A stretch of DNA of 64,000 bases from Limnochorda pilosa (GTDB lineage Bacteria > Bacillota > Limnochordia > Limnochordales > Limnochordaceae). Numbering within the stretch: position 1 is the stretch's first letter; each line of letters opens with the position of its first letter. The notes below the pieces were generated by a model. That model was not told the DNA's origin and ran no database searches. It was given only the letters and a program-made list of their open reading frames with translations. Below, one piece after another: positions 5,253 to 60,213 of this stretch. Made by a program: the position numbers and the translations under genes. The stretch is from positions 1,426,001 to 1,490,000 of the forward strand of contig NZ_AP014924.1 in assembly GCF_001544015.1 (NCBI RefSeq), in the 5' to 3' direction.

Positions 5253-5254
5253 CG

Positions 5255-10233: not shown

Positions 10234-11162
10234 CGAACGGGAGCCTCGCGCGGAGCTACCTGAACAAGGCGTCAGCCCGTCTTCGGGCACTGGACGTCCT
10301 GATGGAGCAGAAGGATTACTCGGACGTGGTCCGGGAAGCCCAGGAGCTTCGCGGTGACCGGGAGATCCTGGCCAGGGGGACACGCTGGAGCTACCGTGAG
10401 GTCGAGGGGGACGAGCCGGTCGCGGTCTTCCTCCACGCGTTCCCCCTGCAGAAGGCCATGTGGGAGCCGGTGCTGGAAGCGCTGGAGGGCCGCGCGCGGG
10501 CCGTCGCGCTGGACCTCCCAGGCTTCGGAAGCAGCGCGTCCCTTCCGGCCGAGCCCACCATGGACGCCTACGCTGACGCGACCGCCGGCTTCCTGGACGC
10601 GCTCGGAATCGGGCAGGCGATCCTCTGCGGCCTCTCCATGGGCGGATACCTGGCCTTCGCCCTCTGGCGGCGCCACCGGGAACGGGTCGCTGGCCTGGTC
10701 CTGGCCGACACCCGGGCTGGCGCCGACACCGCCCAGGCCCGGCAGGGCCGCTACGACCTCGTCGCCCGCCTGGAGCTCCAGGGCGCCCGGGCCGCCGCCG
10801 AGCAGTTCCTCCCGAACCTGGTGGGGCCCACCACCCGAGGCCGCCGGCCGGAGCTCCTGGAGCACCTGGAGGGCTGGATCCTCGCCAACTCGCCCCAAGG
10901 GATGGCGGCCGCCGCCCGGGCCATGGCCGAACGGCCCGATTCCACTGACCTCCTGGCCGGCATCGACGTTCCCGCCTTGGTGGTGGTGGGCGAGGAAGAC
11001 GGCCTCACGCCGCCTGAAGAGGCCGAGCGGATGGCCGGCGCGATCCCCGGGGCGACGCTTGCGCGCATCCCGCAGGCGGGCCACCTGAGCGCGCTGGAGC
11101 AGCCCGGCCCCTTCAACTCGGTGCTGATCGGCTTCCTCGATCGGTTCCGTGCGGGCGGCTGA
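10230..11162 (+). CDS. Alpha/beta hydrolase fused to a HEPN N-terminal stub
   Basis: 310 residues. Residues 1-40 (MTNGSLARSYLNKASARLRA ... DVVREAQEL) match the opening helices of an MNT-partner HEPN protein, but the rest of that domain and its R-x4-6-H motif are gone. From about residue 47 a complete alpha/beta hydrolase begins: FLHAF oxyanion strand, GLSMGG nucleophile elbow, the acid in VVGEEDGLTP, and the catalytic His in QAGHLSALE. The deletion that destroyed the toxin-antitoxin pair appears to have given the hydrolase a new start codon. The substrate cannot be predicted; lactonase- or esterase-like activity is possible. It converges on dusB with an 8-base gap. Confidence 0.8.
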   Translation: MTNGSLARSYLNKASARLRALDVLMEQKDYSDVVREAQELRGDREILARGTRWSYREVEGDEPVAVFLHAFPLQKAMWEPVLEALEGRARAVALDLPGFGSSASLPAEPTMDAYADATAGFLDALGIGQAILCGLSMGGYLAFALWRRHRERVAGLVLADTRAGADTAQARQGRYDLVARLELQGARAAAEQFLPNLVGPTTRGRRPELLEHLEGWILANSPQGMAAAARAMAERPDSTDLLAGIDVPALVVVGEEDGLTPPEEAERMAGAIPGATLARIPQAGHLSALEQPGPFNSVLIGFLDRFRAGG

Positions 11163-11170
11163 GCGGCGCC

Positions 11171-12253: not shown

Positions 12254-12347
12254 CAGCCTGTTCCCTCCCGTAGTGCGGGCGGCTCTCCCGCCCAGTATAG
12301 CATGTCTGCTCGGCGGCCTGCGGTGCCTCGCCCAACCGCCTGCGCCC

Positions 12348-12506
12348 TTATGAAATCCTGCGTAGGAGGACGTACAGGTTCCCAATCGCCTGCTGGTGGA
12401 TCTCGTCGGCGGCGGGTTCTCGCACCAGCCACCCGTGCATGAGCTGGACGCGATAGCGATGATCGTCCTCCGGCAGGGCCTCGTAGTCGTCGACGGTGTA
12501 GGGGCC
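12348..12506 (-). pseudogene. Fragment of a Uma2-family (DUF820) nuclease-like gene
   Basis: The stretch YTVDDYEALPEDDHRYRVQL-x-HGWLVREPA ... QQAIGNLYVLLR is the recognisable N terminus of a Uma2-family protein. The frame then stops at 12348, long before the PD-(D/E)xK-like core. Nothing downstream continues it; dusB begins 95 bases on. It is a truncated remnant, probably of a horizontally acquired gene. The remainder of 12254-12602 contains no other gene. Confidence 0.6.
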
Positions 12507-12602
12507 GCAGCCCGGGCTGGGGCAGCGCTCTGCGGGAAGGAGACCCAGGCACGGCCGTGAAGGGAAAGAGTAACGACGTCTTGCCCACGGAGGCGTTGCA
12601 GG

Positions 12603-45893: not shown

Positions 45894-46587
45894 CGCCCAC
45901 CCACCTCCTCTCGGCGGCCACGATCTCCTCCAGTTCCGCAGCTGCCGCCCGCACGTCCTCGGCTGCCACGACCGCCGAAACCACCGCGAGGCCGCTAACC
46001 CCCGTGGCCAGCACCTCCCTGGCGTTCGACGCCTTGATCCCCCCGATGGCCACCACGGGAATGGAGACGGCCCGCACCATCTCGGCCAGGAGCTCGATCC
46101 CGATGGGCTCCCGGTACGCCTTGGTGGGGGTGGCGAAGACCGCCCGGGTGCCCAGGTAGTCGGCGCCGCCCCGCTCGGCCTCCACCGCCTGCTCCACCGT
46201 CTCGGCGGTGATGCCGATGAGGAGCTCCGAACCGGCCAGGCGCCGCGCGTCGGCCAGGGGCAGGTCCTCCTGGCCCAGGTGGACCCCGTCCGCCCCGATG
46301 GCCAGGGCCACGTCCAGCCGGTCGTCCACGAAGAGGAGGGCGCCCGCCTGCCGGGTGGCCTGCCGCAGATCCAGGCCCACCTCATAGAGTTCCCGGCCGG
46401 ACAGCTCCTTGCCCCGGAGCTGGATCGCGGTCGCGCCGCCGGCCAGCGCCTCCCGCACCACCTCCACCTCGGACCGGCCGCGGGAGAGGCCGCGGTCGGT
46501 CACCACGTAGAGGCGGAGCCGCTCCGGGGCCAGAGGACGGGCGGTGCCCTGCCGGTTGCTGTCGCCCTGCGGGCGAGGATCGGGCAT
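45883..46587 (-). CDS. thiE: Thiamine-phosphate synthase
   Basis: 234 residues. The TIM-barrel family motifs are LYVVTDRGLSRG, AIQLRGKELSGREL, LFVDDRLDVALAIGADGVHLGQEDLP, GADYLGTRAVF-x-TPTK, and VVAIGGIKASNA. It joins HMP-PP and thiazole phosphate to give thiamine phosphate. The ATG at 46587 touches the thiM stop (TGATG), and its own stop lies inside thiL. Confidence 0.95.
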   Translation of the reverse strand: MPDPRPQGDSNRQGTARPLAPERLRLYVVTDRGLSRGRSEVEVVREALAGGATAIQLRGKELSGRELYEVGLDLRQATRQAGALLFVDDRLDVALAIGADGVHLGQEDLPLADARRLAGSELLIGITAETVEQAVEAERGGADYLGTRAVFATPTKAYREPIGIELLAEMVRAVSIPVVAIGGIKASNAREVLATGVSGLAVVSAVVAAEDVRAAAAELEEIVAAERRWVGGAG

Positions 46588-47408
46588 CAGCCTTCCCTCC
46601 GGATCCGGGCGCCCCGCCGGACGTCGTCGGGCGTGAGGGCGTGGAGCTGGTCCATCAGGTGGACCTGGAAGGTGCCGGGCCCGCCCCCGGCCGCGGCCGC
46701 CCGCTCCGCGGCCAGGCCGTAGTAGGCGAGGGCGGCCGCGGTCGCCTCCAGCCGGTCCGGGTGGACGGCCGCGAAGGCGGCCACCACCGAGGTGGCCATG
46801 CAGCCGGTGCCCGTCACCAGGCGGAGCCAGGGGTGGCCGTTCTCCACCGCCAGGGTGCGCTCGCCGTCGGTCACGTAATCGGTGGCGCCGGTGGCCGCCG
46901 CCACCAGGCCGTGCGCCCGGGCGAGCTCGCGGGCCATGGCGGCGGTGTCGCCGGCCGAGACGGCGTCCACCCCTCGCACCCGAGCCTCTCCCCCGGCCAG
47001 GATAGAGAGCTCGGCCGCGTTGCCCCGGACCACGCTCACGGGCAGCTCGGCCAGGAGGCGGCGGGAGCTCTCGGTACGGAGGCTGGTCGCCCCGGCCCCC
47101 ACCGGGTCCAGCACGATGGGCACGCCCGCCTCGGCCGCGGCCCGCCCCGCCTTCAGCATGGCCTCCACCTGCTCCGGGGAGAGGGTGCCGATGTTGAGCA
47201 CCAGGGCCCGGGCCACCCGGGCCATCTCGGCCACCTCTTCGGGGGCGTGGGCCATGACGGGCGAGGCGCCCACGGCCAGGGTGGCGTTGGCGGTCACGTT
47301 GGTGACCACCAGGTTGGTGATGTGGTGGATCAGCGGAACCTCCCGGCGCAGCCGCTCGAGGATGGCGGCGGCCGTTTCGTGGAGGGTGAGATCGTAGGTC
47401 GAAGACAC
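46587..47408 (-). CDS. thiM: Hydroxyethylthiazole kinase
   Basis: 273 residues. ThiM motifs: PLIHHITNLVVTNVTANA, GASPVMAHAPEEV, LDPVGAGAT, VRGNAAE, and the ATP-site TGTGCMATS. It salvages thiazole by phosphorylation. The GTG at 47408 has AGGAGGG nine bases upstream; a longer reading in the same frame runs into the TPP riboswitch and is rejected. First gene of the operon, directly under riboswitch control. Confidence 0.94.
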   Translation of the reverse strand: MSSTYDLTLHETAAAILERLRREVPLIHHITNLVVTNVTANATLAVGASPVMAHAPEEVAEMARVARALVLNIGTLSPEQVEAMLKAGRAAAEAGVPIVLDPVGAGATSLRTESSRRLLAELPVSVVRGNAAELSILAGGEARVRGVDAVSAGDTAAMARELARAHGLVAAATGATDYVTDGERTLAVENGHPWLRLVTGTGCMATSVVAAFAAVHPDRLEATAAALAYYGLAAERAAAAGGGPGTFQVHLMDQLHALTPDDVRRGARIRREG

Positions 47409-47493
47409 GGAAGTCGTCCCTCCTGGGTGGAGGGGCGCCGCCCCGGAGGCGCGACAACCGGCGCGGCAGGGGAGGGAAGAACCGATGGAAGCC

Positions 47494-47577
47494 GTCCCTG
47501 CGCTGGTATGACCCAGATCAGGTTCCAAGGGTTGGGTGGTTCCCTCTCAGCCCCGAAGGGCACCCCTCGGCTTTGCG
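47494..47577 (-). promoter_or_regulatory. TPP riboswitch (THI element)
   Basis: On the minus strand the conserved blocks occur in order: GAGGGGTGCC, CTGAGA, GGAACCTGATCTGGGTCATACCAGCG, AGGGA. These are the hallmarks of the thiamine pyrophosphate aptamer, including the CUGAGA bulge. The aptamer ends about 85 bases before the thiM GTG. The spacer contains a short GC hairpin (about 47435-47452) that may take part in the switch; whether control is by termination or by ribosome-site masking is not clear. Confidence 0.95.
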
Positions 47578-47602
47578 ACCCGATTGGGGTCGGCCTGGGT
47601 TC

Positions 47603-47632
47603 ATGGTAGACGTTGGTCCGGGGATGTGTCAA
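47603..47632 (-). promoter_or_regulatory. Sigma-70-type promoter of the thiMEL operon
   Basis: A perfect TTGACA (47632-47627) and TACCAT (47608-47603) are separated by 18 bases on the minus strand. Transcription should begin about 20 bases before the TPP aptamer, as expected for a riboswitch leader. Confidence 0.75.
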
Positions 47633-47880
47633 GGTCATAACCGAGCCGAGTCCTACCACCGCCGAAGGTGAACGGCTCCGCCCTCGCTACCCGCAGCATA
47701 CCCCCGATTGCGGCAAGGATCAGACTTGCGGAACTTCATCCCTCAAGCCGACCCGCGCCCATGACGAAACCATAGGTACTGGGGTATCTGGATTCGGGGT
47801 CGGGCTCATGGATCTGGGGCCATGGGTCATCGATTGCACCGGGGTCATGCGACCTACCTAATGGGGAAGGAGAGGGTCGT

Positions 47881-49287
47881 TTGCTCGGCCGGGATCCAGC
47901 TGCACTACCGTTGGTTTGTGGGCATGGATCTGCTGCTACGAGGGTCCGGCGCTGCGTGCGTTCCTGTGCCCGGCGTCTCCTCGCTAGGGCCACTGCATTC
48001 TTTGTGATCCTCCATGTGCTCGCCACCGCCGCGGGGGCGAGTCCGGACTTTCCAGGAGAGGCGCTCGTCCGTGAGGGTGTCGTAGAGCGCGTTACGTATC
48101 GCGATCGGTGGATCGAGATCGCCGGACGCGGCCTCTTCTTCTATCAGGTCATCTGGGGGCCGGGACGGAACCAGCTTACCCTCTCCCTCCCGCGCACACG
48201 CCCCGCGGAGGAGCCCCTGGTGCCCACGGGCGAGAGCCGCTACGTGGAAGAGGCTGCGGTGACCGTGGCTGCGGCAGAGGGCTCGCCGTGGGTTACCACG
48301 CAGGTCCACCTTCTCTTGACCGCAGGAGCGCGCCAGCATGGATTCGTGGCTCCGGACGGGCGGAGGATCCAGATCGCGCTGACGCCGGAGCCCGCCGTGA
48401 AGCCGGACGAGGGATCGCCCCCGGTGGGCGGCTTCCAGGCCGTCTCCCTCCGCTACGCGGACGCCAGGGACCTCGCCTCCACCCTCCGCCGGCTCGTGCC
48501 CTACGGCGACACCGTCATCCAGGTGGACGAGCGGCTGAACCGGCTCATCCTAGACAGCTCCCTGGAGCGATTCGAGGATCTCCGTCGGCTGGTGGAGGAG
48601 CTGGACCGGCCAGGCGACCAGATCCTCATCGACGCACAGATCGTCGAGATTCATGCGGACGCAGCCTCGCACCTGGGGATCAGTCTGAGTGCCTCGATCT
48701 CGACTCGGTTCCGCGAGGAGAGCCAGTACTACGGAACGGTTCCCCTGCCGCTCCAGCCCTTCGTCCGCACACCGGTGGAGATCATGGCCACCCTGGATCT
48801 CCTCAAGGGCGAGGGCAAGGCCCAGGTCCTGGCCAACCCCCGGGTGGCCACGGTGGACGGCGTCCCCGCCGTGGTACGGACCGAGGAGCGCTTTCCCGTC
48901 TTCGTCACCCAGGTCAGCGGCGATCAGTCTTTCCGGGTGAAGCAGGACATCGTGGCCGGCATCACACTCTCGATCACCCCGCGTCACAACGGAGACGGCG
49001 AGATCACCACCCAGATCAAGACCGACGTGACCTCCATCACCGGAACGACCTCCGAAGGCTACCCGACCACCAGCAGCCGGGAGGCGGAGACCACCATCCG
49101 CGTCCGCTCGGGGGAGACCATCGTCATCGGAGGACTCCTGGAGCGCCGCGAGATCGAGCACCGGGACAAGATCCCCCTCCTGGGCGACATCCCCTATTTC
49201 GGGGCCCTTTTCACCAATTTCCGGAGCGAGATGAAGGAGACGGAGCTTTTCATCATCGTGACGCCGTACCTGATCGGGGAGGTGTGA
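47881..49287 (+). CDS. Secretin-domain protein (GspD/PilQ-type)
   Basis: 468 residues as read from a TTG; a GTG at 47956 is another possible start just before the signal peptide (ARATAFFVILHVLATAAGA). A short N-terminal beta region is followed by one secretin_N/NolW-like domain (about 178-240, VSLRYADARDLASTLRRLV). The C-terminal secretin domain has LANPRVATVDGVPAVVRTEER, the GGLLERREIEHRDKIPLLGD signature region and IPYFGALF, ending with an outer-membrane-type strand LFIIVTPYLI. Secretins form rings in an outer membrane. The next gene starts three bases later with its ribosome site inside this gene's end. Upstream, 47633-47880 carries no gene. Confidence 0.85.
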   Translation: MLGRDPAALPLVCGHGSAATRVRRCVRSCARRLLARATAFFVILHVLATAAGASPDFPGEALVREGVVERVTYRDRWIEIAGRGLFFYQVIWGPGRNQLTLSLPRTRPAEEPLVPTGESRYVEEAAVTVAAAEGSPWVTTQVHLLLTAGARQHGFVAPDGRRIQIALTPEPAVKPDEGSPPVGGFQAVSLRYADARDLASTLRRLVPYGDTVIQVDERLNRLILDSSLERFEDLRRLVEELDRPGDQILIDAQIVEIHADAASHLGISLSASISTRFREESQYYGTVPLPLQPFVRTPVEIMATLDLLKGEGKAQVLANPRVATVDGVPAVVRTEERFPVFVTQVSGDQSFRVKQDIVAGITLSITPRHNGDGEITTQIKTDVTSITGTTSEGYPTTSSREAETTIRVRSGETIVIGGLLERREIEHRDKIPLLGDIPYFGALFTNFRSEMKETELFIIVTPYLIGEV

Positions 49288-49290
49288 AAG

Positions 49291-50388
49291 ATGGGTGAGA
49301 ACATCCCTCTACGTCAGTGCAAAGGGTTTCGAGGACGACAGCGAGTCTCGCGGAGAAGTCATGATCGCAGCTTGTACCGACTGCTTCAGCAAACGGGGCT
49401 CGGATACGCCGTCTTCCTCTGTGTTCTCCCGGGAATGGTGTACGCCGCCACCATTACTGGAACTGTCACGGACATGCTGGGGGAGCCTATTTCCGATGTG
49501 CCGGTAGGGGTCGTGGCACATGAAGCGGGGCACCCCCCTGATGCTGGCGATTTCCTCACCTTACCGTCGATCTCAGGCTCGGACGGACGCTTCCGCCTAC
49601 CCGGCCTACCTCCGGGAGAGTACGACGTGGTCGTCCTCGGTAAGCATGCTCCGCGGGCATTCGGGCATTCGCTCCCCTTCCTCCAAGCAAGACTGCGTGG
49701 CGTTCAGCTCTCTTCCATGGCAGATGAGGTGGACGTATCCGTCGCTCTCGTACGGAACATGGTTGCCCTCAGCCCGGAACCCTACACCAGGTGGACTGCG
49801 TCATCCTCGGTTCGTTTTCGATGGGCGCCCGTTCCCGGCGCAGACCGATACCGCATTGAGGTAAGAACCGCCCTGCACGAACCTGTCCTCATCGAGGAAA
49901 CCTCGAAGCCCGAGAGCTCCTTTATTGACATCAGTGAACAGACCGGCAGGATCTTGGTATGGCACGTTGCGGCTTTCCAGGATCAGACTCTCGTTGCGTT
50001 GTCTCCTTATCCGTGGGAGCGAAGGTGGTCCGTGTACGTTCCCGGCACGGAGGTGATCACCGCGCAGGAGATGCTTCTGACCAGCGGTGCAAGAAATGGG
50101 GAGCTCACCAAGCCCAGGTCGGTGTTCGACGTAACGGAGGATCGGGTGCTGGCCTGGGAAACGTGGCCAGATCGATCCGAGGAACACCTCATCCTCGCAC
50201 GGTTCTTCGACCCGTTCGGGCGTCTCTATCATGAACTTCCATACCCGTTGTCACCCAGCATCAGCAGAACCTGGCAGGGGATCGATGTTTCGAATCACCG
50301 CGCAGCGGAGCTTCCTGGTGAATGGATCGTCGAGATTCTCGTGGATGGGCTGAGAGCTGCCAGGTTCAACTTCACTCTAAATGAGTAG
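49291..50388 (+). CDS. Secreted protein with carboxypeptidase-regulatory-like domain
   Basis: 365 residues. A signal peptide (GYAVFLCVLPGMVYA) precedes a CarboxypepD_reg-like beta-sandwich (TITGTVTDMLGEPISDVPVGV ... FRLPGLPPGEYDVVVLG). A second beta-rich region, with a fibronectin-type phrase APVPGADRYRIEV, completes the protein. No enzyme motif is visible. The ATG at 49291 has GGGGAGG eight bases upstream inside the end of the secretin gene. The 50-base gap to the RHS gene suggests all three are one transcript. Composition is less GC-rich than the neighbouring core genes. Confidence 0.75.
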   Translation: MGENIPLRQCKGFRGRQRVSRRSHDRSLYRLLQQTGLGYAVFLCVLPGMVYAATITGTVTDMLGEPISDVPVGVVAHEAGHPPDAGDFLTLPSISGSDGRFRLPGLPPGEYDVVVLGKHAPRAFGHSLPFLQARLRGVQLSSMADEVDVSVALVRNMVALSPEPYTRWTASSSVRFRWAPVPGADRYRIEVRTALHEPVLIEETSKPESSFIDISEQTGRILVWHVAAFQDQTLVALSPYPWERRWSVYVPGTEVITAQEMLLTSGARNGELTKPRSVFDVTEDRVLAWETWPDRSEEHLILARFFDPFGRLYHELPYPLSPSISRTWQGIDVSNHRAAELPGEWIVEILVDGLRAARFNFTLNE

Positions 50389-50438
50389 CACTGCGTCCCA
50401 AGCCTGGAGCGGAGCATGCCAGGGAGGGTGAATGTACC

Positions 50439-53400
50439 GTGAGACGCCTATCACATCTCTTGCTGTTGATTGTAGTCCTGCTCGTCGTGGCGCGATCGGT
50501 GGCGCCGGCCAGAGCTCAGACCGTTCATCCCCTCTGCCTTAACCAATGCTTCGACAACGGTGGAGGTAGCGGCGGCGACGATGGTGGCGGCGGTGGAGAT
50601 GATGGTGGCGGCGGTGGAGATGATGGTGGCGGCGGTGGAGATGATGGTGGCGGCGGTGGAGATGATGGCGGCGGTGGCGACAACGGCGATGGCGACGGTG
50701 ATGGCGATGACGGTGATGGCGGGGACCCACCGCCGGATGCGGATGGGGACGGTACCCCCGACGCCGAGGACCCCGACGACGACAACGACGGGTTCACGGA
50801 CCCGACGGAGGGGCGTGCCGGAACCGGCACCAAGGATGACGGCAGCGTACCTCAAGAGCCTGGTAACGAGGCCGGAGAGCTCGTGGAAGAGTCGGGTGAG
50901 CAAGGAAACCACGACCTGTCAGGCGATCCGGTCAACCCCCTGACGGGGGAGTACATCCTGACCCAAACGGACCTCACCGTTCCGGGGGCCGGTCTCCCCT
51001 TCTCGTTCGCGCGGACGTACGCGTCCAATTCACCGGTCGATGGGCCTCTCGGCGCGAAGTGGACCCACACGTACCATCGAACGCTGACGATGAACTGGAA
51101 CTACTCCATGGACGTCCGGGACGGCCAGGGACGCCGCCTGCACTACCGATTCGTGCCGGACCCCGAGGTGCCGGTGAGCTCCTTCGACGGCGACCCGTTG
51201 ATCGAGATCAGGCTGGACCGCGGGTACTTCGAGTCGTCGGTCCTCAACTCCAACACCCTCGCCCGCAACCCCGACGGGACGTACACGGAGCGGACGAAGG
51301 ACGGCATCGCGTACCGGTACGCCGGTTACTGGGCCCGCTGGCGGGGAAGCAACCAGTCGCCGACGGCGGGCAGGCTGATGGACATCACCGATTCCAACGG
51401 CAATCGCCTGGCCTTTCACTACGACGGCCAGGGGCGGCTCACGGAGATCGTCGATACAGCGGGCCGGAAGTACCACCTCACCTACGAGGGGTCTCTCCTG
51501 GTGGAGCTCAGGGACCCGGCCGGCAGGCGGCTGCAGTACGATTACGATGAAAGAGGGCGCCTGAAGGAGGTGATCAACCCGATCGGGAGCCGCTGGCGTT
51601 TCCAGTACGATGAGGAGGGTCGCCTCACCCGCTACACGGGCCCGCGCGGCTTCAGCATGAGCTACCGGTACGACGCCGAGGGCCGGGTGGTCGAGGTCGT
51701 CGCGCCGGATGGCTCTCTCTACAACCGCTTCACCTACCAGCGCGGCAGCGGCTACCGCACCGAGTACACCGACCCGAGAGGCGGAACGACGGTCTATGTC
51801 TTCGATGCCGAGGGCCACCTGACCTCGAAGCGGGACCCCCTGGGCAAGGTAACCCAGTACGAGTACGACGAAGGCTTCAACCGCATTCGAACGGTCGATC
51901 CCACCGGGGCGGTGACGCGGGCAAGGTACGACGGGAAGAAGAACGTGGTGGAGCTCACCGGCCGGTCGGGCGAGGTGTACCGGTTTCAGTACGAGCCCGG
52001 CTTCAACAGGCTCACCGAGATCGTCGACCCCCTTGGAAACCGCACCCGCATGACCTACGACGGGCGGGGCAATCTGGTCGGCCTCTCCGATCCGCTGAAC
52101 CGGACCACGACGTACTCCTACGACACCCGCGGCCTCCTTCGCGGCGTCACGAATTCCAAGGGACAGACGACGGAGTTTGCCTACGACGCGCACGGGAACG
52201 TCACGTCCATCACGGATCCCTCGGGCGCGGTCACTCGCTTCACCTACGACGGTCTGGGCCACCTCCTCACCATGACCGATCCTCTCGGGAAGACCACCCG
52301 CCTCGAGTACGACGGCCTGGGGCGCGTGCTCCGGGTACAGGAGCCGACAGGGGCCGAGCACCGCTACACGTACGATGCCGATGGGCACGTCCTCTCGTAC
52401 GTGGACCCCTCCGGGGCGGTCTACACCTGGTCCTACGATCCCTTCGGGCGGGTCGTGCAATACACGGATCCCCTTGGACAGGTTCAACGCTTCCAGTACG
52501 ACGCCGGGGGCAAGCTCCTGGCGGCGACCGACCCTCTGAATCGGACCTTCCGCTACGCGTACGACGCGGCCGGCCGGCTGACCCGGGCGACCAACCCGGC
52601 CGGGGAGAAGACCCGCTACGCGTACGACGAGCTCGGCAGGCTCAGGGAGCTCACCGATGCGCTGGGAAGGAGCACGGAGCTGGCCTACGACCCGTCGGGC
52701 CGGCCGGTCCGCGTCGAGGACCCCTCCGGCGGGGTGATGGAGTACGAGTACGATCCTCTTGGCCGGCTGATCCGTCGCGTGGACCCAGGCGGCAACCTCT
52801 TCCGCTGGACCTACGACGCGGCGGGGCAGCTCGTGGAGGAGGAGTCGCCTCAGGGGCGGATCCGCTACACCTACGACCCTCTCGGCAACGTCGCCACCCG
52901 GACCGATCTGGCCGGGCGCACCACCCGCTTCGCCTACGATGCCCGAGGGTTGCTCACCGAGATCGTCTACCCGGACGAGACGGTGCGCTTCGCCTACGAC
53001 GCGGCCGGCCGCATGACTCTAGCCTCGAACCCGGCCCTCAGCGAGCGGTATGCCTACGACGCGATGGGGCGGCTCATCGAGGTGCAGAACCTCACCCTCA
53101 ACAAGACCCTCAGGACCACCTACGACGCGAGGGGGCTCCGCACCAGCCTCACCGACCCGGAGGGACGGGTCTTCAGGTACGCGTACAACCCCCTGGGGCG
53201 GCTCGAGCAGTTCACGGGTTCCGAAGGGCAGCGGTTCGAGTTCTCCTACGACGCCCTGGCGAGGTTGGAGCGGGTGCGGCATCCGAACCAGGTGGAGACG
53301 CGGTACGGCTACGACGTCGCGGGCAGGCTCGCGAGCCTCGTGACCGGGAGCCCCTTCGAGGAGATCCTCCGCTACACGTACCGCTACGACGCGGTGGGCA

Positions 53401-54386
53401 ACCCCCTGGAGCGGGGGGAGGGAGGCGGGGCCGTCTCCCGCTACGCCTACGACCTCTTGGACCGCCTGGTGCGGGTGGAGTACCCCCTGGAGGCGATCGA
53501 GGCGATCCGGGCCTGGCAGGACGGGACGTTCCCTCCGGGGAAGGGCCTGTCGCAAGGCGCGACCTCATACCCGCTCGCTCCGACCCTCCCGGTTCCACCT
53601 ACCCGCGTGCCCTCCCTGCCGGAAGGTGAGGTGGTGGAGGCCATCCCGCAGGCGCCTGGGACCTCGGAGGGCAGGCAGCCTCCCAGCGAACCTCCGGGCC
53701 AGGGAGGGAAGCCCGGGGGCGGCAGGCCGGACGACCCGGGAGGCGCCGTCTCCTGGCCGGATCCCTTCGCACGGGCGAGCTACACCTACGACCGGGTGGG
53801 CAACCGGCTCACGCTGCAGACCGATGCGGGGATCCTCCCCTACACCTACGGCACCCTCAACCGCCTGCTCCGTGCGGGTGTGGTCACCTACCGGTACGAC
53901 GCCAACGGCAACGTGGTCGAGCGGGCGGACCAGGAGAAAACGATCCGCTACACCTACGACTCGAGGAATCAGCTGACCCGGGTCGACTTCCCCGACGGCA
54001 CCTGGGTGCGCTATGCCTACGACGCCTTCGGGAGGCGGGTCTACCGGGAGGAGAGCTACTGGCAGAACGCACAGAAGCAGAAGACCGAGATCACCCACTA
54101 CCTCTACGACGGCCTCGAGGTGCTGATGGAGTACGCGGGGACCCCGGGGAGGGTCTTCCGCCCCTGGCGGAGTACTACCGCGCGAACGGGCAGCTCCTCG
54201 CCAGGAAGATGTTCGGCTTCCACGGGCGGAAGGCGCCAGGGAACGAGGAGTTCCTCAGGACCGGCGGGGGGCTGCTCAACTACCACACGGACGCCTTGGG
54301 GAGCGTGCAGGCGCTCACGGACCGTAAGGGCGAGGTGGTGGTGCAATACTCCTACGAGGTCTTCGGCGAGGTCTGGGCGGGGGTGA
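50439..54386 (+). CDS. RHS/YD-repeat polymorphic toxin, N-terminal region and core (frame lost at 54160s)
   Basis: 1315 codons from a GTG start with GGGAGGG upstream. A signal peptide (about 1-26) is followed by a Gly/Asp repeat (about 43-85), a thrombospondin-type-3-like calcium motif (DADGDGTPDAEDPDDDNDG), a DUF6531-type opening (GDPVNPLTGEYILTQTDL), and some forty YD repeats. Typical phrases are YDxxGRL and TRYxYD. The meaningful reading ends at ...GTPGRVFRP; beyond 54167 the last 74 codons are out of frame. The proper continuation (LAEYYRANGQ) lies in the -1 frame. RHS cores form a beta-cage that encloses a C-terminal toxin (family knowledge). Confidence 0.88.
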   Translation: MRRLSHLLLLIVVLLVVARSVAPARAQTVHPLCLNQCFDNGGGSGGDDGGGGGDDGGGGGDDGGGGGDDGGGGGDDGGGGDNGDGDGDGDDGDGGDPPPDADGDGTPDAEDPDDDNDGFTDPTEGRAGTGTKDDGSVPQEPGNEAGELVEESGEQGNHDLSGDPVNPLTGEYILTQTDLTVPGAGLPFSFARTYASNSPVDGPLGAKWTHTYHRTLTMNWNYSMDVRDGQGRRLHYRFVPDPEVPVSSFDGDPLIEIRLDRGYFESSVLNSNTLARNPDGTYTERTKDGIAYRYAGYWARWRGSNQSPTAGRLMDITDSNGNRLAFHYDGQGRLTEIVDTAGRKYHLTYEGSLLVELRDPAGRRLQYDYDERGRLKEVINPIGSRWRFQYDEEGRLTRYTGPRGFSMSYRYDAEGRVVEVVAPDGSLYNRFTYQRGSGYRTEYTDPRGGTTVYVFDAEGHLTSKRDPLGKVTQYEYDEGFNRIRTVDPTGAVTRARYDGKKNVVELTGRSGEVYRFQYEPGFNRLTEIVDPLGNRTRMTYDGRGNLVGLSDPLNRTTTYSYDTRGLLRGVTNSKGQTTEFAYDAHGNVTSITDPSGAVTRFTYDGLGHLLTMTDPLGKTTRLEYDGLGRVLRVQEPTGAEHRYTYDADGHVLSYVDPSGAVYTWSYDPFGRVVQYTDPLGQVQRFQYDAGGKLLAATDPLNRTFRYAYDAAGRLTRATNPAGEKTRYAYDELGRLRELTDALGRSTELAYDPSGRPVRVEDPSGGVMEYEYDPLGRLIRRVDPGGNLFRWTYDAAGQLVEEESPQGRIRYTYDPLGNVATRTDLAGRTTRFAYDARGLLTEIVYPDETVRFAYDAAGRMTLASNPALSERYAYDAMGRLIEVQNLTLNKTLRTTYDARGLRTSLTDPEGRVFRYAYNPLGRLEQFTGSEGQRFEFSYDALARLERVRHPNQVETRYGYDVAGRLASLVTGSPFEEILRYTYRYDAVGNPLERGEGGGAVSRYAYDLLDRLVRVEYPLEAIEAIRAWQDGTFPPGKGLSQGATSYPLAPTLPVPPTRVPSLPEGEVVEAIPQAPGTSEGRQPPSEPPGQGGKPGGGRPDDPGGAVSWPDPFARASYTYDRVGNRLTLQTDAGILPYTYGTLNRLLRAGVVTYRYDANGNVVERADQEKTIRYTYDSRNQLTRVDFPDGTWVRYAYDAFGRRVYREESYWQNAQKQKTEITHYLYDGLEVLMEYAGTPGRVFRPWRSTTARTGSSSPGRCSASTGGRRQGTRSSSGPAGGCSTTTRTPWGACRRSRTVRARWWCNTPTRSSARSGRG
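50577..50678 (+). repeat. 21-bp minisatellite encoding DDGGGGG
   Basis: Four to five near-identical 21-base units (gatgatggtggcggcggtgga and variants) are repeated inside the RHS gene. They encode an acidic glycine-rich linker between the signal peptide and the calcium-binding motif. The unit is in frame, so copy number could vary without breaking the protein. Confidence 0.9.
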
Positions 54387-54528
54387 TGGGCCCGTACAAC
54401 CGCTACGCCTTCACGGGGAAGGAGTATGACCCGAAGACGGGACTCTACTACTTCGGAGCGCGCTGGTACGACCCGGAGGTGGGGCGGTGGACCAGCCAGG
54501 ACCCGGTGAGGGATGGGCTGAACTGGTA
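52651..54528 (+). repeat. RHS core repeat copy A
   Basis: This 1.88-kb block is repeated at 56032-57905. The first 210 bases compared by eye differ at only three positions. The copies diverge abruptly after aactggta, at the usual RHS core/tip border. Copy B lacks 4 bases relative to A near 57054 (ggcaggcagcctccc against ggcagtctccc). Confidence 0.95.
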
Positions 54529-55213
54529 TCTCTACGTCCGCAACAACCCTCTTCGCTACGTCGATCTGTGGGGTCTCGTCACCTTGGACCTGTTGCGTTA
54601 TGGATCCATGGGGGAAGAGGTGAAGAATCTACAATCTGATCTGTCCCGGCTCGGCTACACGGCTGACGTAGGGCCTATCGATGGTATCTTTGGGCCACGA
54701 ACAGAAGCAGCGGTTCGGAGATTTCAGGCTGTGAACGATCTGAGCGTGGACGGTATCGTGGGTCCGGAGACTCGAGCCGCCATTGATCAACAAATCGCCA
54801 ATGCCCCAGCATTCGCAGCTTCGGGTCCGACAGCTCATTTCGGTGCTAACGCCAGGATCTCCTTGGTAAACGTTGAAGCTGATGTGACGCGAACTTCAGC
54901 GAGTGGCAATGTATCCATCATTCATGCTCGCGGTTTCGGATTCAGACTGGACATCCTATCTCTCGAGGGCGGCGGCGGACTCTTCGGGGAAGCCTCTGGT
55001 TCTGTCGACTCTACCAGGTCCCTGACTACAGGGATCTTTGGCGGCCTCGGACTTGGCGGCTACGCTTCTGTTGTAAAGATCGAAGCTCCCTTGGGTGGTG
55101 TAAAGGTAGCTGTGTGCGTGGTATGTGGAGGTGGCAGCGCTGGACTCGGCGCTGGTGATAGGTGGGGCTTTGCGTGGGGCCTTCTGGGATTGCAGGTCTC
55201 AAGTGGGCCGTGA
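54209..55213 (+). CDS. RHS C-terminal module 1: core end, peptidoglycan-binding domain and glycine-rich tip
   Basis: 334 codons from ATG 54209, which has AGGAAG directly upstream; it may instead be reached by a -1 frameshift from the main RHS gene. It contains the end of the RHS core (FTGKEYDPKTGLYYFGARWYDP ... GRWTSQDPVRDG), then a PG_binding_1-type domain (LRYGSMGEEVKNLQSDLSRLGY ... IDGIFGPRTEAAVRRFQ). A C-terminal tip of about 135 residues is Gly/Ala/Val-rich with no catalytic motif I recognise. Base composition of the tip is visibly less GC-rich than the core. It is probably the toxin end of the main RHS protein (inference). Confidence 0.8.
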   Translation: MFGFHGRKAPGNEEFLRTGGGLLNYHTDALGSVQALTDRKGEVVVQYSYEVFGEVWAGVMGPYNRYAFTGKEYDPKTGLYYFGARWYDPEVGRWTSQDPVRDGLNWYLYVRNNPLRYVDLWGLVTLDLLRYGSMGEEVKNLQSDLSRLGYTADVGPIDGIFGPRTEAAVRRFQAVNDLSVDGIVGPETRAAIDQQIANAPAFAASGPTAHFGANARISLVNVEADVTRTSASGNVSIIHARGFGFRLDILSLEGGGGLFGEASGSVDSTRSLTTGIFGGLGLGGYASVVKIEAPLGGVKVAVCVVCGGGSAGLGAGDRWGFAWGLLGLQVSSGP

Positions 55214-55422
55214 GTGCGCATCGTTCCCGGGTCTAGATCGTATCACGGTGAAGTGCAGAAAGGTGTCAGTGTACTGTGGGCGCGAACGCTGCCTCGGTGG
55301 AATCTCGGTCCGGCCTCTGGCCCCTAGATACGGGCCAAGGCAGCCGATCGCGTGGCGCCACTTGGAAACTAGCGCCTTGTCTTTCCGTGGGGAACGAGAT
55401 ATATAAGGAGCGTCGGGGTTGA

Positions 55423-55653
55423 ATGAAGAGACCCTCTGAAGTCGCCGTTGGCGTAATTGCCATTTGCGTAGCTTCGCTGGCTCTTATTGTACGCATTATG
55501 CTGGACCCCTACCACTCAACGACAGACGGATTGCGGGGAGTCATATGGGACGCAGTGATTAAGGGTCTAGTCGTTGTGGGCGCGGTCATAGCAGCACGTT
55601 ACAACTATCACAAATTGAGAGAGCGTATCGTGCGCAGACGAGGAAAGCAATGA
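55423..55653 (+). CDS. Small two-helix membrane protein, candidate immunity protein
   Basis: 76 residues with two hydrophobic segments (AVGVIAICVASLALIVRIML and GLVVVGAVIAARY) and a basic end (RERIVRRRGKQ). The ATG at 55423 has AAGGAGC 14 bases upstream, a long spacing. It is the first gene after the RHS tip, where immunity genes usually lie, and its low G+C matches the tip. The immunity role is inference from position. The 209 bases before it (55214-55422) hold no gene. Confidence 0.6.
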   Translation: MKRPSEVAVGVIAICVASLALIVRIMLDPYHSTTDGLRGVIWDAVIKGLVVVGAVIAARYNYHKLRERIVRRRGKQ

Positions 55654-55764
55654 TGCCCCTGAGTCGCCCCCGGTTTTATGGCAAACATCGGAGTAATGTG
55701 CCAGATGATTGCCGCGGGTCACGCGATTACGGCTTTGGGGGCTGGGGATGAGTGGGCAAGTGAA

Positions 55765-55822
55765 AAGAGAAGAGACCTCTGTAGAAGACGTTTCGAAAAA
55801 CCCAAGGGAGGTCTCTTCTCTT
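55765..55822. repeat. 15-bp perfect inverted repeat next to the transposase remnant
   Basis: Arms 55765-55779 (aagagaagagacctc) and 55808-55822 (gaggtctcttctctt) are exact inverse complements separated by 28 bases. They sit just upstream of the transposase-like ATG at 55830. This could be the end region of an insertion sequence or a protective hairpin; no second end is visible. Confidence 0.75.
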
Positions 55823-55829
55823 GGTCTCC

Positions 55830-56030
55830 ATGTTCCCATGGGTCACCCACGTTTGTCAAGGTTTGCATCGGGCGCAGCAGAAGACCCTCGCCGCTCTCCT
55901 GGAGGCTTTCCTTGCCAGCAGGAGCTCCGTCCTGAAGAGCGCGCCACGTCCGTCTCTTTTCACGCGGCGGCCAAGGGGATCGACCGCTTCCTCGCCAATG
56001 CTCGGCTGCATCCTTCCGTCGTTCGTGGAA
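55830..56030 (+). pseudogene. Transposase N-terminal remnant (IS4/IS701-like)
   Basis: From ATG 55830 the residues MFPWVTHVCQGLHRAQQKTL and AALLEAFLA resemble the start of IS4-type transposases. After a frameshift the neighbouring frame gives KGIDRFLANARLHPSVV, which fits the next segment of the same family. The gene then stops abruptly at RHS copy B. No DDE domain is left. The family assignment is from pattern recognition only. Confidence 0.6.
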
Positions 56031-58608
56031 CTCACCGATGCGCTGGGAAGGAGCACGGAGCTGGCCTACGACCCGTCGGGCCGGCCGGTTCGCGTCGAGG
56101 ACCCCTCCGGCGGGGTGATGGAGTACGAGTACGATCCTCTTGGCCGGCTGATCCGTCGCGTCGACCCAGGCGGCAACCTCTTCCGCTGGACCTACGACGC
56201 CGCGGGGCAGCTCGTGGAGGAGGAGTCGCCTCAGGGGCGGATCCGCTACACCTACGACCCTCTCGGCAACGTCGCCACCCGGACCGATCTGGCCGGGCGC
56301 ACCACCCGCTTCGCCTACGATGCCCGCGGGCTGCTCGCCGAGATCGTCTACCCCGACGAGACGGTGCGCTTCGCCTACGACGCGGCCGGCCGCATGACTC
56401 TTGCCTCGAACGCGGCCCTGAGCGAGCGGTACGCCTACGACGCGATGGGGCGGGTCATCGAGGTGGAGAACCTCACCCTCAACAAGACCCTCAGGTATAC
56501 CTACGACGCGAGGGGGCTTCGCACCAGCCTCACCGACCCGGAGGGACGGGTCTTCAGGTACGCGTACAACCCCCTGGGGCGGCTCGAGCAGTTCACGGGT
56601 CCCGAAGGGCAGCGGACCGAGTTCTCCTACGACGCCCTGGCGAGGCTGGAGCGGGTGCGGCATCCGAACCAGGTGGAGACGCGGTACGGCTACGACGTCG
56701 CGGGAAGACTCGCGAGCCTCGTGACCGGGAGCCCTTTCGAGGAGATCCTCCGCTACACGTGCCGCTACGACGCGGTGGGCAACCCCCTCGAGCGGGGGGA
56801 GGGGGGCGGGGCGGTCTCCCGCTACGCCTACGACCTGCTGGACCGCCTGGTGCGGGTGGAGTACCCCCTGGAGGCGATCGAGGCGATCCGGGCCTGGCAG
56901 GACGGGACGTTCCCTCCGGGGAAGGGCCTGTCGCAAGGCGCGACCTCATACCCGCTCGCTTCGACCCTCCCATCTCCACCTGCCCCCGTGCCCTCCCTGC
57001 CAGAAGGTGAGGTGGTGGAGGTCATCCCGCCGGCGCCTGGGACCCCGGAGGGCAGTCTCCCAGCGAACCTCCGGGCGGGGGAGGGAAGCCCGGGGGCGGC
57101 AGGCCGGACGACCCGGGAAGCGGCGTCTCCTGGCCGGATCCCCTCGCACGGGCAAGCTACACCTACGATCGGGTGGGCAACCGGCTCACGCTGCAGACCG
57201 ATGCGGGGATCCTCCCCTACACCTACGGCACCCTCAACCGCCTGCTCCGTGCGGGCGTGGTCACCTACCGGTACGACGCCAACGGCAACGTGGTCGAGCG
57301 GGCGGACCAGGAGAAAACGGTCCGCTACACCTACGACTCGAGAAATCAGCTGACCCGGGTCGAGTTCCCCGACGGCACCTGGGTGCGCTACGCCTACGAC
57401 GCCTTCGGGAGGCGGGTCTACCGGGAGGAGAGCTACTGGCAGAACACACAGAAGCAGAAGACCGAGATCACCCACTACCTCTACGACGGGCTCGAGGTGC
57501 TGATGGAGTACGCGGGGACCCCGGGGAGGGTCTTCCGCCCCTGGCGGAGTACTACCGCGCGAACGGGCAGCTGCTCGCCAGGAAGATGTTCGGCTTCCAC
57601 GGGCGGAAGGCGCCGGGGAACGAGGAGTTCCTCAGGACCCGGGGAGGACTGCTCTTCTACCACACGGATGCTCTGGGGAGCGTGCAGGCGCTCACGGACC
57701 GCAAGGGCGAGGTGGTGGTGCAGTACTACTACGAGGTCTTCGGGCAGGTCTGGGCGGGTCTGATGGGCCCGTACAACCGCTACGCCTTCACGGGGAAGGA
57801 GTACGACCCGAAGACGGGGCTCTACTACTTCGGGGCGCGCTGGTACGACCCGGAGGTGGGGCGGTGGACCAGCCAGGATCCGGTACGGGATGGGTTGAAC
57901 TGGTACGCGTATGTCGGTAATAGGCCAACTGCCTTCGTCGATCCGTTCGGGCTTTTCAAGGTTGATCCCTCGGGGCAGTGGGGTACCGTCGAACCTGGAG
58001 ACACGCTTTCAGGCATTGCACAGGAGATTTACGGCGACTCGTCCCTTTATACCGAAATCGTCCGGATACAACCGTTCGCGATCCCGGATCCTGATCGTAT
58101 CTACCCAGGCCAGAACATAATACTACCGCGGACCCAGAGCTACCCTCAGGGGTACGACCTCAGAAATGACTCGGTCAGAGAGGATTGGGTAACAGAAAGT
58201 CTCCTCTTTGGAGGCTTAGCAGTTAGGTCTCGTGCTTTGACCTGGGCAACTCGTGCTTGGACCTGGGTAAGGAGTTCTATTGCGGCAGAGGGTGCTGCTG
58301 GCGTCGCTCGCGTCGGTCACGCGGGCGAAGCGGCGGTGAGATCAGTCGCCAATATCGGTCCGAAAGAGGCCATCAGGGTTGCCGGGCGTACGCGGATTCC
58401 CGATGGTCTCAATTGGGAGACCAGGGTTCTCAGCGAGGTGGAAAACGTGCAGTCGTTGAGCTATACCCAGCAACTTCGTGACTTCGCGACCTATGCGCAG
58501 AACAACGGGCTGCGGTTCGACCTGTGGGTGAGACCGACAACGCGGTTGTCGGGACCGCTCGCCCGGGATATTGCGAATGGCGTTATCAGCCTGAGGTACA
58601 TCCCATGA
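56031..58608 (+). pseudogene. Headless RHS copy with LysM and nuclease-like tip (orphan toxin cassette)
   Basis: The copy begins mid-core without signal peptide or N terminus. It changes frame at a 4-base deletion near 57054 and again at the -1 site 57532-57543, which it shares with copy A. The last frame runs through the core end to 58608 and encodes a LysM domain (VEPGDTLSGIAQEIYGDSSL ... YPGQNIILP), a helical linker, and a C-terminal block RTRIPDGLNWETRVLSEVEN ... SYTQQLRDFATYAQNNGLRFDLWVRPTT. This resembles restriction-endonuclease-fold polymorphic toxins (Tox-REase-7-like). The expected E-x-K active-site pair reads E-V-E here. It probably cannot be made as one protein but may donate its tip to copy A by recombination (inference). 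Confidence 0.8.
56032..57905 (+). repeat. RHS core repeat copy B
   Basis: Second copy of the block at 52651-54528, offset by 3381 bases at the left end and 3377 at the right end. The difference is the 4-base deletion. It is the substrate for homologous exchange between the two RHS tips. Confidence 0.95.
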
Positions 58609-59198
58609 AGAAGAGGATTACGGCTGCCGAACTAATGTCGAAGTTGAACGCTGACCCGAAGTTCGTCGTCCAGCGCGCCAAAAGGGAAGAAGAGCATCAG
58701 AAACGTGTCGCGGAATTCCGGCGCGCCGAAGCTCCGCTAGTGGAGGAACTGCGAGCGGCGGGATTCGCGGTGGAGTCAGTGGGATCTCTGCTGAACACCG
58801 CGACTCCGTATCCGAAGGCACTTCCGATCTTGCTAGAGCATCTTCAACGTCCGTATCCCGGAGATGTGCGAGAGGTGATTGCCCGTGCGTTGGCGGTGCC
58901 AGAGGCAAAATTCGGCTGGGATGTGCTGACACGGCTCTTCCGGGACGAACGAGACGACGAGCGAGCGAAGGACGGCTTGGCCGTTGCCATCGCTGCGATA
59001 GCGGACGATCAAACCATTGGCGAGGTGATTGCGCTCGCACGCGACCCGCAACACGGGTCCAGTCGGTTGCTACTTTTGAGTGCGCTTGAACGTTCCCGCG
59101 ACCCGCGAGCGCTGGCAGCATTGATGGAACTAGAAACGGACCCGGACCTGGTGAAGGAAATCCGGGTCATTCTTCGCCGGTTGAAGCGGAAACGTTGA
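58605..59198 (+). CDS. HEAT-repeat-like immunity protein for the LysM/nuclease tip
   Basis: 197 residues. The ATG overlaps the toxin stop as ATGA. An N-terminal helical region (MKKRITAAELMSKLNADPKF) leads into repeated helical pairs of HEAT type (TPYPKALPILLEHLQRPYPG; VREVIARALAVPEAKFGWDV; LLLLSALERSRDPRALAALM). Such proteins are common immunity partners of nuclease tips. Lower G+C and the tight overlap with the tip mark them as one cassette. A direct test of binding is lacking. Confidence 0.8.
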   Translation: MKKRITAAELMSKLNADPKFVVQRAKREEEHQKRVAEFRRAEAPLVEELRAAGFAVESVGSLLNTATPYPKALPILLEHLQRPYPGDVREVIARALAVPEAKFGWDVLTRLFRDERDDERAKDGLAVAIAAIADDQTIGEVIALARDPQHGSSRLLLLSALERSRDPRALAALMELETDPDLVKEIRVILRRLKRKR

Positions 59199-59288
59199 CG
59201 CGGAGGTCATGGCGGAACCCGGGCTTCGGGCTGGACACGCGGGCAAAACCCCAAGGATAGCATACGCGAACGAGGGCGGCGCGTCAAG

Positions 59289-59510
59289 CCGCTCCCGCTG
59301 CAGACCGATGCGGGGATCCTCCCCTACACCTACGGCACCCTCAACCGCCTGCTCCGTGCGGGCGTGGTCACCTACCGGTACGACGCCAACGGCAACGTGG
59401 TCGAGCGGGCGGGTGGAGAGGGAACGGTCCGCTACACCTACGACTCGAGGAATCAGCTGACCCGGGTCGACTTCCCCGACGGCACCTGGGTGCGCTATGC
59501 CTACGATGCC
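59289..59510 (+). pseudogene. Third RHS core fragment
   Basis: About 220 bases match the stretch of copies A and B that encodes LQTDAGILPYTYGTLNRLLR to WVRYAYDA, with a local difference (GGEGTVRY instead of DQEKTIRY). It ends at TATGCCTACGATGCCTGA, where the match to the other copies stops. No start or tip is present, so it is a recombination scrap. The flanks (59199-59288, 59511-59692) show no gene. Confidence 0.85.
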
Positions 59511-59692
59511 TGATCTGGAAACCACCTACCAAAACCGTACACTACCTCTCGGCCGGGGCAGTCGGGCACGAGGGCCGCAGGCTCCAGCGGCCCGCGCGCG
59601 ACCCCTCCGTCGGAAGAAACGGCAGGAGCCCCGACTCGGGGCAAGAACCCTTCCTGGAACCCAAACCCCACTGGGTGCGAAGGAGGCTCCCC

Positions 59693-60148
59693 TTGGAGAC
59701 GGCTTTTGTCATGGCCTCGATCAACGCGCTCATCAACGCCACCAGCGCCGTGGTGATCGTGCGGGCGCGGCGCTTCATCCGCAACAAGAACGTGCCCGCC
59801 CACCGGCGCCTGATGATCATCGCCACCGTCCTGCAGGGCGTCTTCCTGGCGCTCTACCTCATCAAGGCCTATCTCTTCGGGACCACGCTCTTCGAGGGCA
59901 GCGCGGCCGTGAGAGTGCTTTACCTGGCCCTCCTGGCGGTCCATGTCGGGGCCGCCACCGTCAGTGCCCCGCTCGTGGTCTACGCGCTGGTGCTCGGGCT
60001 CCAGCGCCGCTTCGGGCGCCACCGGGCGGTGGTCCGCTGGGCGTACCCTCTGTGGCTCTTCGTCTCGGTGAGCGGCCCGCTCACGTACCTGATGCTCTAC
60101 GGGCTGGGGAGGCCCGGCTACGGGCTACAGGCGATGCTCGTGCCTTGA
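59693..60148 (+). CDS. DUF420 membrane protein
   Basis: 151 residues with four to five helices. The opening AFVMASINALINATSAVVIV, the AHRRLM motif with its conserved His, and two later His/Arg loops (LAVHVGAAT; GRHRAVVRWAYPLWLFVSV) are typical of DUF420 proteins, which in some bacteria are linked to cytochrome oxidase assembly. The start is a TTG with AGGAGG six bases before it; an ATG at 59711 is also possible. It converges on the glutamate synthase gene with a 65-base gap. Confidence 0.85.
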   Translation: METAFVMASINALINATSAVVIVRARRFIRNKNVPAHRRLMIIATVLQGVFLALYLIKAYLFGTTLFEGSAAVRVLYLALLAVHVGAATVSAPLVVYALVLGLQRRFGRHRAVVRWAYPLWLFVSVSGPLTYLMLYGLGRPGYGLQAMLVP

Positions 60149-60213
60149 GGAAGTCGCCGGGGCGGAGCGATCCGGGGGCGGGCGACACCCGTCCACCATG
60201 ACGCTGCCACTGG

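What the first reader, a model, noticed from the sequence alone, without database searches (positions are those of the whole stretch)
47881..50438. Secretin and a secreted beta-sandwich protein immediately upstream of the RHS gene
The three genes are in the same direction with gaps of 3 and about 50 bases. A stand-alone secretin beside a signal-peptide-bearing RHS protein raises the idea of a dedicated outer-membrane exit. It also implies that the organism has an outer membrane, notable if it belongs to the Firmicutes.
Basis: inference. Interest (0 to 1): 0.55.

Follow-up and report, generated by a model that had tools for sequence, protein, structure and literature searches.

The report
Secretin paired with RHS toxin genes
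In a two-membraned relative of Firmicutes, a gene for an outer-membrane pore of the kind normally used by pili and type II secretion sits directly before an RHS toxin gene, twice in one genome in which no pilus or type II motor was found, which suggests an unrecorded exit route for such toxins.

Summary
In detail: a secretin (47881-49287), a Sec-exported CarboxypepD_reg protein (49291-50388) and an RHS gene (50439 onward) lie on one strand with gaps of 3 and 50 bases. The trio is not a unit; the secretin-RHS pair is. A second copy at 1.31 Mb has an 82-84% identical secretin directly before an intact 1589-aa RHS gene, without the middle gene. The two secretins are old duplicates under purifying selection (dN/dS 0.20); the RHS cores were recently homogenised (dS 0.007). 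Across 72 genomes of the class (inferred: Limnochordia), 5 of 22 RHS loci (4 genomes, 4 families) have a same-strand secretin within about 3 kb upstream; about 0.04 are expected. The outer membrane (BamA, LpxC found) is already published for the class. Best reading: a PilQ-related, motor-less secretin is the outer-membrane exit for Sec-exported RHS toxins, as TpsB/CdiB is for CdiA. That step is inferred. The window's own RHS gene has a frame break before its tip, most RHS loci lack a secretin, and a related genome carries the secretin with no RHS nearby.

The parts
47740..47879 (+). upstream patch shared with the 1.31 Mb copy (possible promoter / 5' leader region)
   Evidence: blastn 47762-47847 84.9%; local alignment over 47740-47879
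47881..49287 (+). secretin, 468 aa: signal peptide (by eye), unassigned N-terminal domain (about 55-180), N1 (186-247), secretin domain (308-465); no N0/STN match
   Evidence: dN/dS 0.197 against the 1.31 Mb copy
49291..50388 (+). Sec-exported CarboxypepD_reg-domain protein, 365 aa; locus-specific, not part of the conserved pair
   Evidence: in 41 genomes only its own gene and two partial matches of 18-20 bits (27-30% identity) in G017 and G031; no relative in genome contigs at close range
50439..54386 (+). RHS protein: signal peptide (by eye), Gly/Asp-rich repeat, DUF6531, YD repeats; frame ends before the core ends
54209..55213 (+). continuation of the RHS core, PG_binding_1 domain and C-terminal tip, in another frame than 50439-54386
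55821..58608 (+). second, partial RHS copy (no N-terminus): RHS repeats, core, LysM, Tox-REase-7 tip; spread over at least three frames (55821-57353, 57173-57763, 57007-58608)
58524..59198 (+). HEAT-repeat protein directly after the Tox-REase-7 tip: candidate immunity protein (by position)
59285..59511 (+). 227-bp RHS fragment (third copy, remnant)

Best explanation
The conserved unit is a pair: a PilQ-related secretin gene followed by an RHS polymorphic-toxin gene. The RHS protein is carried over the inner membrane by Sec (signal peptide, by sequence) and folds its YD shell round the C-terminal tip in the periplasm, where its LysM or PG_binding domain can hold it at the peptidoglycan. It then leaves through, or is displayed by, the ring of the neighbouring secretin, which here works without a type II/IV ATPase or pseudopilus. 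The secretin would do for RHS what TpsB/CdiB does for CdiA. Shown: gene order, second copy, selection on both secretins, recurrence in the class, no motor ATPase over cut-off, outer-membrane marker genes. Inferred: that RHS is the cargo, that the ring is in the outer membrane, and what drives transport. The CarboxypepD_reg protein is an accessory of this one locus.
For: Second copy at 1.31 Mb: secretin (L006 10882-12348, minus) directly before an intact 1589-aa RHS (6081-10850), no middle gene; shared upstream DNA. Secretin A/B dS 0.583, dN 0.115, dN/dS 0.197 (0.09-0.10 in N1 and C-domain) against RHS-core dS 0.007 over 1100 codons: both secretins kept while the RHS cores were exchanged. G012 (another family) holds what looks like the orthologous pair in decay: secretin C-end 71.5% DNA identity over 221 columns, RHS end 58-64% protein identity, 2 kb apart, same strand. 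No T2SSE ATPase over cut-off in the genome, 54 of 54 candidates scored; 14 of 14 controls ring, 13 over cut-off. BamA and LpxC present.
Against: No experiment and no expression data. G010 has a close relative of the G007 secretin with no RHS in the 13 kb fetched, and its one RHS locus with readable upstream DNA has no secretin. 11 of 16 RHS loci with readable upstream DNA lack a secretin, including a third one in this genome at 1.54 Mb. In G049 an ABC transporter lies between and the RHS match is weak (DUF6531 28.0 bits, 23.9 against a cut-off of 24.1). In G012 the secretin is broken and opposite-strand frames lie between. In G007 the secretin is cut by the contig start and the downstream pieces are an RHS end and orphan tips. 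The window's own RHS is frame-broken. No driving force is identified, and a folded RHS shell may be wider than a secretin lumen (recalled dimensions, not tested). The chance estimate was made after seeing the cases.
Confidence: 0.45

Rival explanations
1. Hitch-hiking: the secretin is a retained PilQ-like pore with its own role (for example DNA uptake or envelope transport); it was carried along when RHS elements, which recombine often, were copied, and RHS simply settled beside it.
For: RHS cores are recombining (dS 0.007; partial copies at 55821-58608 and 59285-59511). G010 has a related secretin without RHS in 13 kb. In the midpoint-rooted tree A/B fall in the half that holds secretins lying within about 10 kb of T2SSE ATPases, such as those of G003, G015, G025 and G038.
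Against: Linkage recurs in four families; both secretin copies kept under selection; no ATPase partner for a pilus over cut-off in this genome.
Confidence: 0.3
2. The secretin belongs to a wider class of motor-less secretins in these genomes that export or assemble secreted beta-rich surface proteins; the CarboxypepD_reg protein, not RHS, is its natural partner.
For: The genome's other two secretins (3.01 and 2.00 Mb) follow a 559-586-aa secreted, beta-rich (by eye) protein; 9 of 12 secretin regions that I picked from relatives, mostly from genomes without the ATPase, match that protein beside the secretin.
Against: The CarboxypepD_reg gene is absent from the 1.31 Mb copy and gave no match in those regions; A/B secretins fall outside the module clade.
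Confidence: 0.12
3. The secretin is the outer-membrane port of a type II system or type IV pilus encoded elsewhere.
For: Secretin domain similar to GspD and PilQ.
Against: No T2SSE-family ATPase over cut-off in the 3.817-Mb single-contig genome; scores are under half of the GspD and just over half of the PilQ cut-offs.
Confidence: 0.03
4. RHS leaves by a route unrelated to the secretin (cell lysis, type VI or phage-tail-like injection, another outer-membrane channel).
For: 11 of 16 RHS loci with readable upstream DNA have no secretin there; T6SS and phage-tail genes were not searched.
Against: Sec signal peptide (by eye) on the RHS proteins argues against T6SS loading; linkage above the chance estimate.
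Confidence: 0.1

Closest known systems
Two-partner secretion / CDI (CdiB-CdiA, TpsB-TpsA)
   Same: Outer-membrane channel gene next to a Sec-exported polymorphic toxin gene; PMC3482391 (passages seen) uses the adjacent TpsB-class gene as the marker of that route
   Different: Here the channel is a secretin, not an Omp85/TpsB barrel, and the toxin is an RHS protein, not a filamentous haemagglutinin-type protein (the latter recalled)
PilQ / GspD secretins (type IV pilus, type II secretion)
   Same: Secretin and N1 domains; best PDB sequence matches are GspD (7.1e-25) and PilQ (6.3e-23)
   Different: No N0/STN match, no detectable AMIN domain, below NCBIfam cut-offs, no ATPase over cut-off in the genome
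Sec-exported RHS toxins of one-membraned Firmicutes (WapA of Bacillus subtilis, recalled)
   Same: Signal peptide, DUF6531, YD repeats, core, variable C-terminal tip; B. subtilis is the control genome that rings for DUF6531
   Different: This organism has an outer membrane to cross
Filamentous-phage pIV and other secretins without their own motor (recalled)
   Same: A secretin not encoded with its own type II or pilus motor
   Different: No phage genes among the neighbours that were identified around either copy; linked to RHS instead

Membership tests
Secretin superfamily | C-terminal secretin domain (PF00263) preceded by an N1-type domain (PF03958) | tested here: met
   137.3 and 45.2 bits, cut-offs 27.5 and 28.2
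Secretin superfamily | Oligomeric ring in the outer membrane | not testable with these tools
   needs biochemistry; single-sequence model unusable, pLDDT 32
Type II secretion (GspD) | TIGR02517 equivalog score | tested here: not met
   155.6 against 351.35
Type II secretion / type IV pilus / Tad | Assembly ATPase (PF00437) in the genome | tested here: not met
   two sub-threshold partial matches, 23.2 and 19.6 bits against 24.9; 14 of 14 controls ring, 13 over cut-off
Type IV pilus (PilQ) | TIGR02515 score and AMIN domain | tested here: not met
   151.2 against 284.35; no AMIN match to residues 51-180 with max E 10, though HMMER's filters drop most weak matches
Type III secretion (SctC) | TIGR02516 equivalog score | tested here: not met
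   134.6 against 238.45
Two-partner secretion (type V) | Omp85/TpsB partner encoded beside the exoprotein | tested here: not met
   neighbour is a secretin; the genome's three Omp85 matches lie elsewhere; TpsB models themselves were not searched
RHS polymorphic toxins | DUF6531, YD repeats, Rhs_assc_core, variable C-terminal tips, displaced tip cassettes | tested here: met
   partial second copy with a Tox-REase-7 tip
T6SS-delivered Rhs effectors | T6SS genes; PAAR or VgrG-linked N-terminus, no signal peptide | tested here: inconclusive
   no PAAR match in the RHS proteins, N-terminal signal peptides by eye; T6SS genes not searched

The most novel reading that the evidence does not exclude
A motor-less secretin serves as a one-component outer-membrane exit dedicated to Sec-exported RHS toxins: the secretin counterpart of CdiB-CdiA, evolved from a PilQ-like protein in diderm Firmicutes (Limnochordia) that lost or never had the pilus motor. 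With the beta-rich-protein/secretin modules elsewhere in these genomes, it would be one branch of a wider family of secretin routes that work without an assembly ATPase.
Probability: 0.35. Interest if true: 0.75.

Novelty: new variant of a known kind. Interest (0 to 1): 0.52.

Why it matters
In the large survey of polymorphic toxin trafficking (PMC3482391, passages seen) the table row for Sec-dependent toxins lists no signature neighbour gene, and the word 'secretin' does not occur in the held first 300,000 characters; how Sec-exported RHS toxins cross an outer membrane is left open there as far as I saw. A secretin that exports cargo without an ATPase or pseudopilus would also question the view that secretins are passive parts of a motor-driven machine. 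The pair is small (two genes), present in a cultivated species if the genome is Limnochorda pilosa, and can be tested directly.

Tried and rejected
Trio as a unit: rejected. In 41 genomes the CarboxypepD_reg protein has only its own gene and two partial matches of 18-20 bits and 27-30% identity; no relative was found in genome contigs (close relatives only; the tool says the own genome may be left out there); and the gene is missing from the 1.31 Mb copy.

Type II or type IV pilus elsewhere using this secretin: rejected. Over relatives, 13 of 41 genomes show no PF00437 match above 40 bits (my reading of the table), and 9 of those 13 have a secretin match. One of the nine, G013, has PilN/PilO-like genes beside one secretin by eye, so its ATPase may be missing from the assembly. 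In one search many genomes had only 36 candidates scored.

Outer membrane as news: rejected. Omp85 in 16 of 16 genomes, LpxC in 15 of 16. Limnochordia are described as diderm in PMC11456536 (passages seen), and Limnochorda pilosa is set apart from the 'atypical' Gram-negative Bacillota without LPS genes in PMC11448272 (passages seen).

AMIN domain in the secretin N-terminus: expected by eye; no Pfam match with max E 10. Structure: both single-sequence models are too poor to use (pLDDT 32 and 39), so no fold search was run.

Promoters and terminators: no sigma-70-like site on the + strand in 47000-60300 (2 sites, both minus; shuffles mean 1.6) and no terminator-like site on the + strand between 49288 and 50439 (one on the minus strand at 50115-50101; 7 in all, shuffles mean 5.8). 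This neither proves nor excludes one transcript.

Close relatives by name: both genome-contig scans found none.

Papers: 'orphan secretin' gave one unrelated paper; 'secretin' + 'Limnochordia' gave five, none on this as far as the listing shows (passages of PMC9388160 seen); 'secretin' + 'Rhs' + 'polymorphic toxin' + 'outer membrane' gave 21 papers, 20 listed, none by title or abstract start on a secretin-RHS pair. Two further searches, 18 of 18 and 20 of 74 papers listed, gave nothing on it by title or abstract start. Papers not named as 'passages seen' were seen in listings only.

Full report
What is in the window. The secretin (47881-49287, 468 aa) has PF00263 (137.3 bits) and an N1-type domain PF03958; residues 51-180, after the signal peptide, match no Pfam family with max E 10. 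Its best PDB sequence relatives are GspD and PilQ, but it stays far below the NCBIfam cut-offs for GspD, PilQ and SctC, so it should not be filed as any of these. The second gene (49291-50388) has one CarboxypepD_reg domain. The third (50439 onward) is an RHS protein with signal peptide (by eye), DUF6531 and YD repeats. The frame from 50439 ends at 54386, whereas the RHS core end and a PG_binding_1 domain continue in another frame (54209-55213). A second, N-terminally truncated RHS copy (55821-58608) ends in LysM and a Tox-REase-7 tip; by eye it is broken at the corresponding place and at one more. It is followed by a HEAT-repeat protein that may be its immunity protein, and a 227-bp third fragment lies at 59285-59511. 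The layout fits a polymorphic-toxin locus with displaced copies.

Which organism. I infer Limnochorda pilosa, class Limnochordia: PMC11456536 says that three Limnochordales genomes are closed, one of them L. pilosa (passages seen); G000, G003 and G006 are the three single-contig genomes of this order; and the size fits what I recall. Where I write 'class' or Limnochordia, this inference is meant.

The pair, not the trio. The genome has four secretins. The nearest to ours lies at 1.31 Mb on the other strand, 82-84% identical, and is followed directly by an intact 1589-aa RHS gene with LysM and another C-terminal end. The CarboxypepD_reg gene is not there. Upstream DNA is shared by both copies. 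The secretin copies are old (dS 0.583) and constrained (dN/dS 0.197 overall, 0.09-0.10 in N1 and C-domain, 0.55 in residues 1-54), while 1100 codons of the RHS core differ by dS 0.007. The two RHS genes have therefore been homogenised recently while each kept its own secretin under selection.

Recurrence in the class. In 72 genomes I searched Rhs_assc_core (22 matches in 10 genomes), DUF6531 (5 of 72 genomes, 4 over cut-off) and Secretin (62 of 72 genomes). Merging RHS matches that lie close together on a contig gives 22 RHS loci in 11 genomes, one of them (G067) only a sub-cut-off DUF6531 match. In five of these a secretin lies upstream on the same strand within about 3 kb: the two in this genome, G007:C5, G012:C304 and G049:C43. 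These are four genomes of four families. The expected number for a 5-kb window is 0.042 (Poisson 1.0e-9 for five; 1.2e-7 for four, counting the two own copies once; 1.2e-5 if G049 is dropped too). This estimate assumes random placement and was made after seeing the cases. Six of the 22 loci are cut by a contig end less than 1.6 kb upstream and a seventh, G048:C219, has 2.8 kb, so the share is 5 of 16 readable loci (my count). The cases differ in quality. In G012 the pair looks orthologous but decayed (secretin C-end 71.5% DNA identity, RHS end 58-64% protein identity, LysM included), with opposite-strand frames between. In G007 the secretin is cut by the contig start and is followed, by eye, by an orphan tip, a secreted protein and an RHS end. 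In G049 a MacB-like ABC transporter lies between, and the RHS match is weak.

Counter-cases. 11 of the 16 readable RHS loci have no secretin upstream, including the 1.54 Mb locus of this genome. G010, whose secretin is close to that of G007, has no RHS within the 13 kb fetched. In a tree of 46 secretin rows (40 different), our two copies group with those of G010 and G007 (support 95/86), but the program warns that long branches meet there, and the root is only the midpoint. G049's secretin falls elsewhere, on a long branch.

No motor. PF00437 finds no ATPase over cut-off in this genome (54 of 54 candidates scored; 14 of 14 controls ring, 13 over cut-off). The genome does have outer-membrane genes (Omp85 4.6e-51; LpxC 1.2e-67), as published for Limnochordia.

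How it most likely works. Sec carries RHS to the periplasm; the YD shell encloses the tip; LysM or PG_binding domains can hold it at the peptidoglycan; the neighbouring secretin is the exit. The first step follows from the signal peptides, the shell from the family (recalled); the last step is inference from linkage. The driving force is unknown and is the weakest point. I put 0.45 on this, 0.30 on hitch-hiking of a pore with another role, 0.12 on a beta-rich-protein export role in which RHS is a bystander, 0.10 on RHS leaving by another route and 0.03 on a missed pilus or type II system.

Novelty. The nearest principle is CdiB-CdiA; the difference is the kind of channel and toxin. PMC3482391 has no occurrence of 'secretin' in its held text, and my paper searches found no report of such a pair (listings); most subscription papers are not held. 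I call it a new variant of a known kind.

Noticed in passing
L005 (G000 3.00-3.02 Mb) 8008-14129 and L007 (2.00 Mb) 7943-12723; relatives L088-L090, L092-L095, L097, L098: The genome's other two secretins each follow a 559-586-aa secreted, beta-rich (by eye) protein and precede a barrel-like (by eye) one. Of 12 secretin regions picked from relatives, 9 match the beta-rich protein beside the secretin (L095 only a 23-aa piece), 7 the two small secreted proteins of L005, 4 the barrel-like one. It resembles a chaperone-usher layout with a secretin in the usher's place and deserves its own study.
   Followed up: partly
window 54209-54386 and 57007-57763: Both RHS copies in the window have a frame break at the corresponding place near the core end; the 1.31 Mb copy is intact. 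A shared real lesion spread by recombination, an assembly artefact or a programmed shift were not told apart.
   Followed up: no
L096 (G007:C5) 826-2302 and 2571-5271: Two tip-plus-secreted-protein cassettes of similar sequence behind a secretin; the 373-374-aa secreted proteins match no Pfam family and may be periplasmic immunity proteins.
   Followed up: no
L086 (G000 about 454.3 kb) 9330-9398: A 69-bp, 90% identical remnant of the secretin gene (residues about 73-93), perhaps a lost third copy.
   Followed up: partly
L006 5635-6129 (minus): DUF4279 protein overlapping the end of the intact RHS gene at 1.31 Mb: candidate immunity protein for its tip.
   Followed up: no
L005 4270-5286: PorV/PorQ-family outer-membrane protein (91.9 bits, cut-off 90), about 6.6 kb before a stand-alone secretin, next to a lamin-tail-like/PKD-like protein by eye.
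   Followed up: no
window 47478-47577 (minus): TPP riboswitch before the divergent thiamine genes (hydroxyethylthiazole kinase at 46587-47528), which bound the locus on the left.
   Followed up: yes
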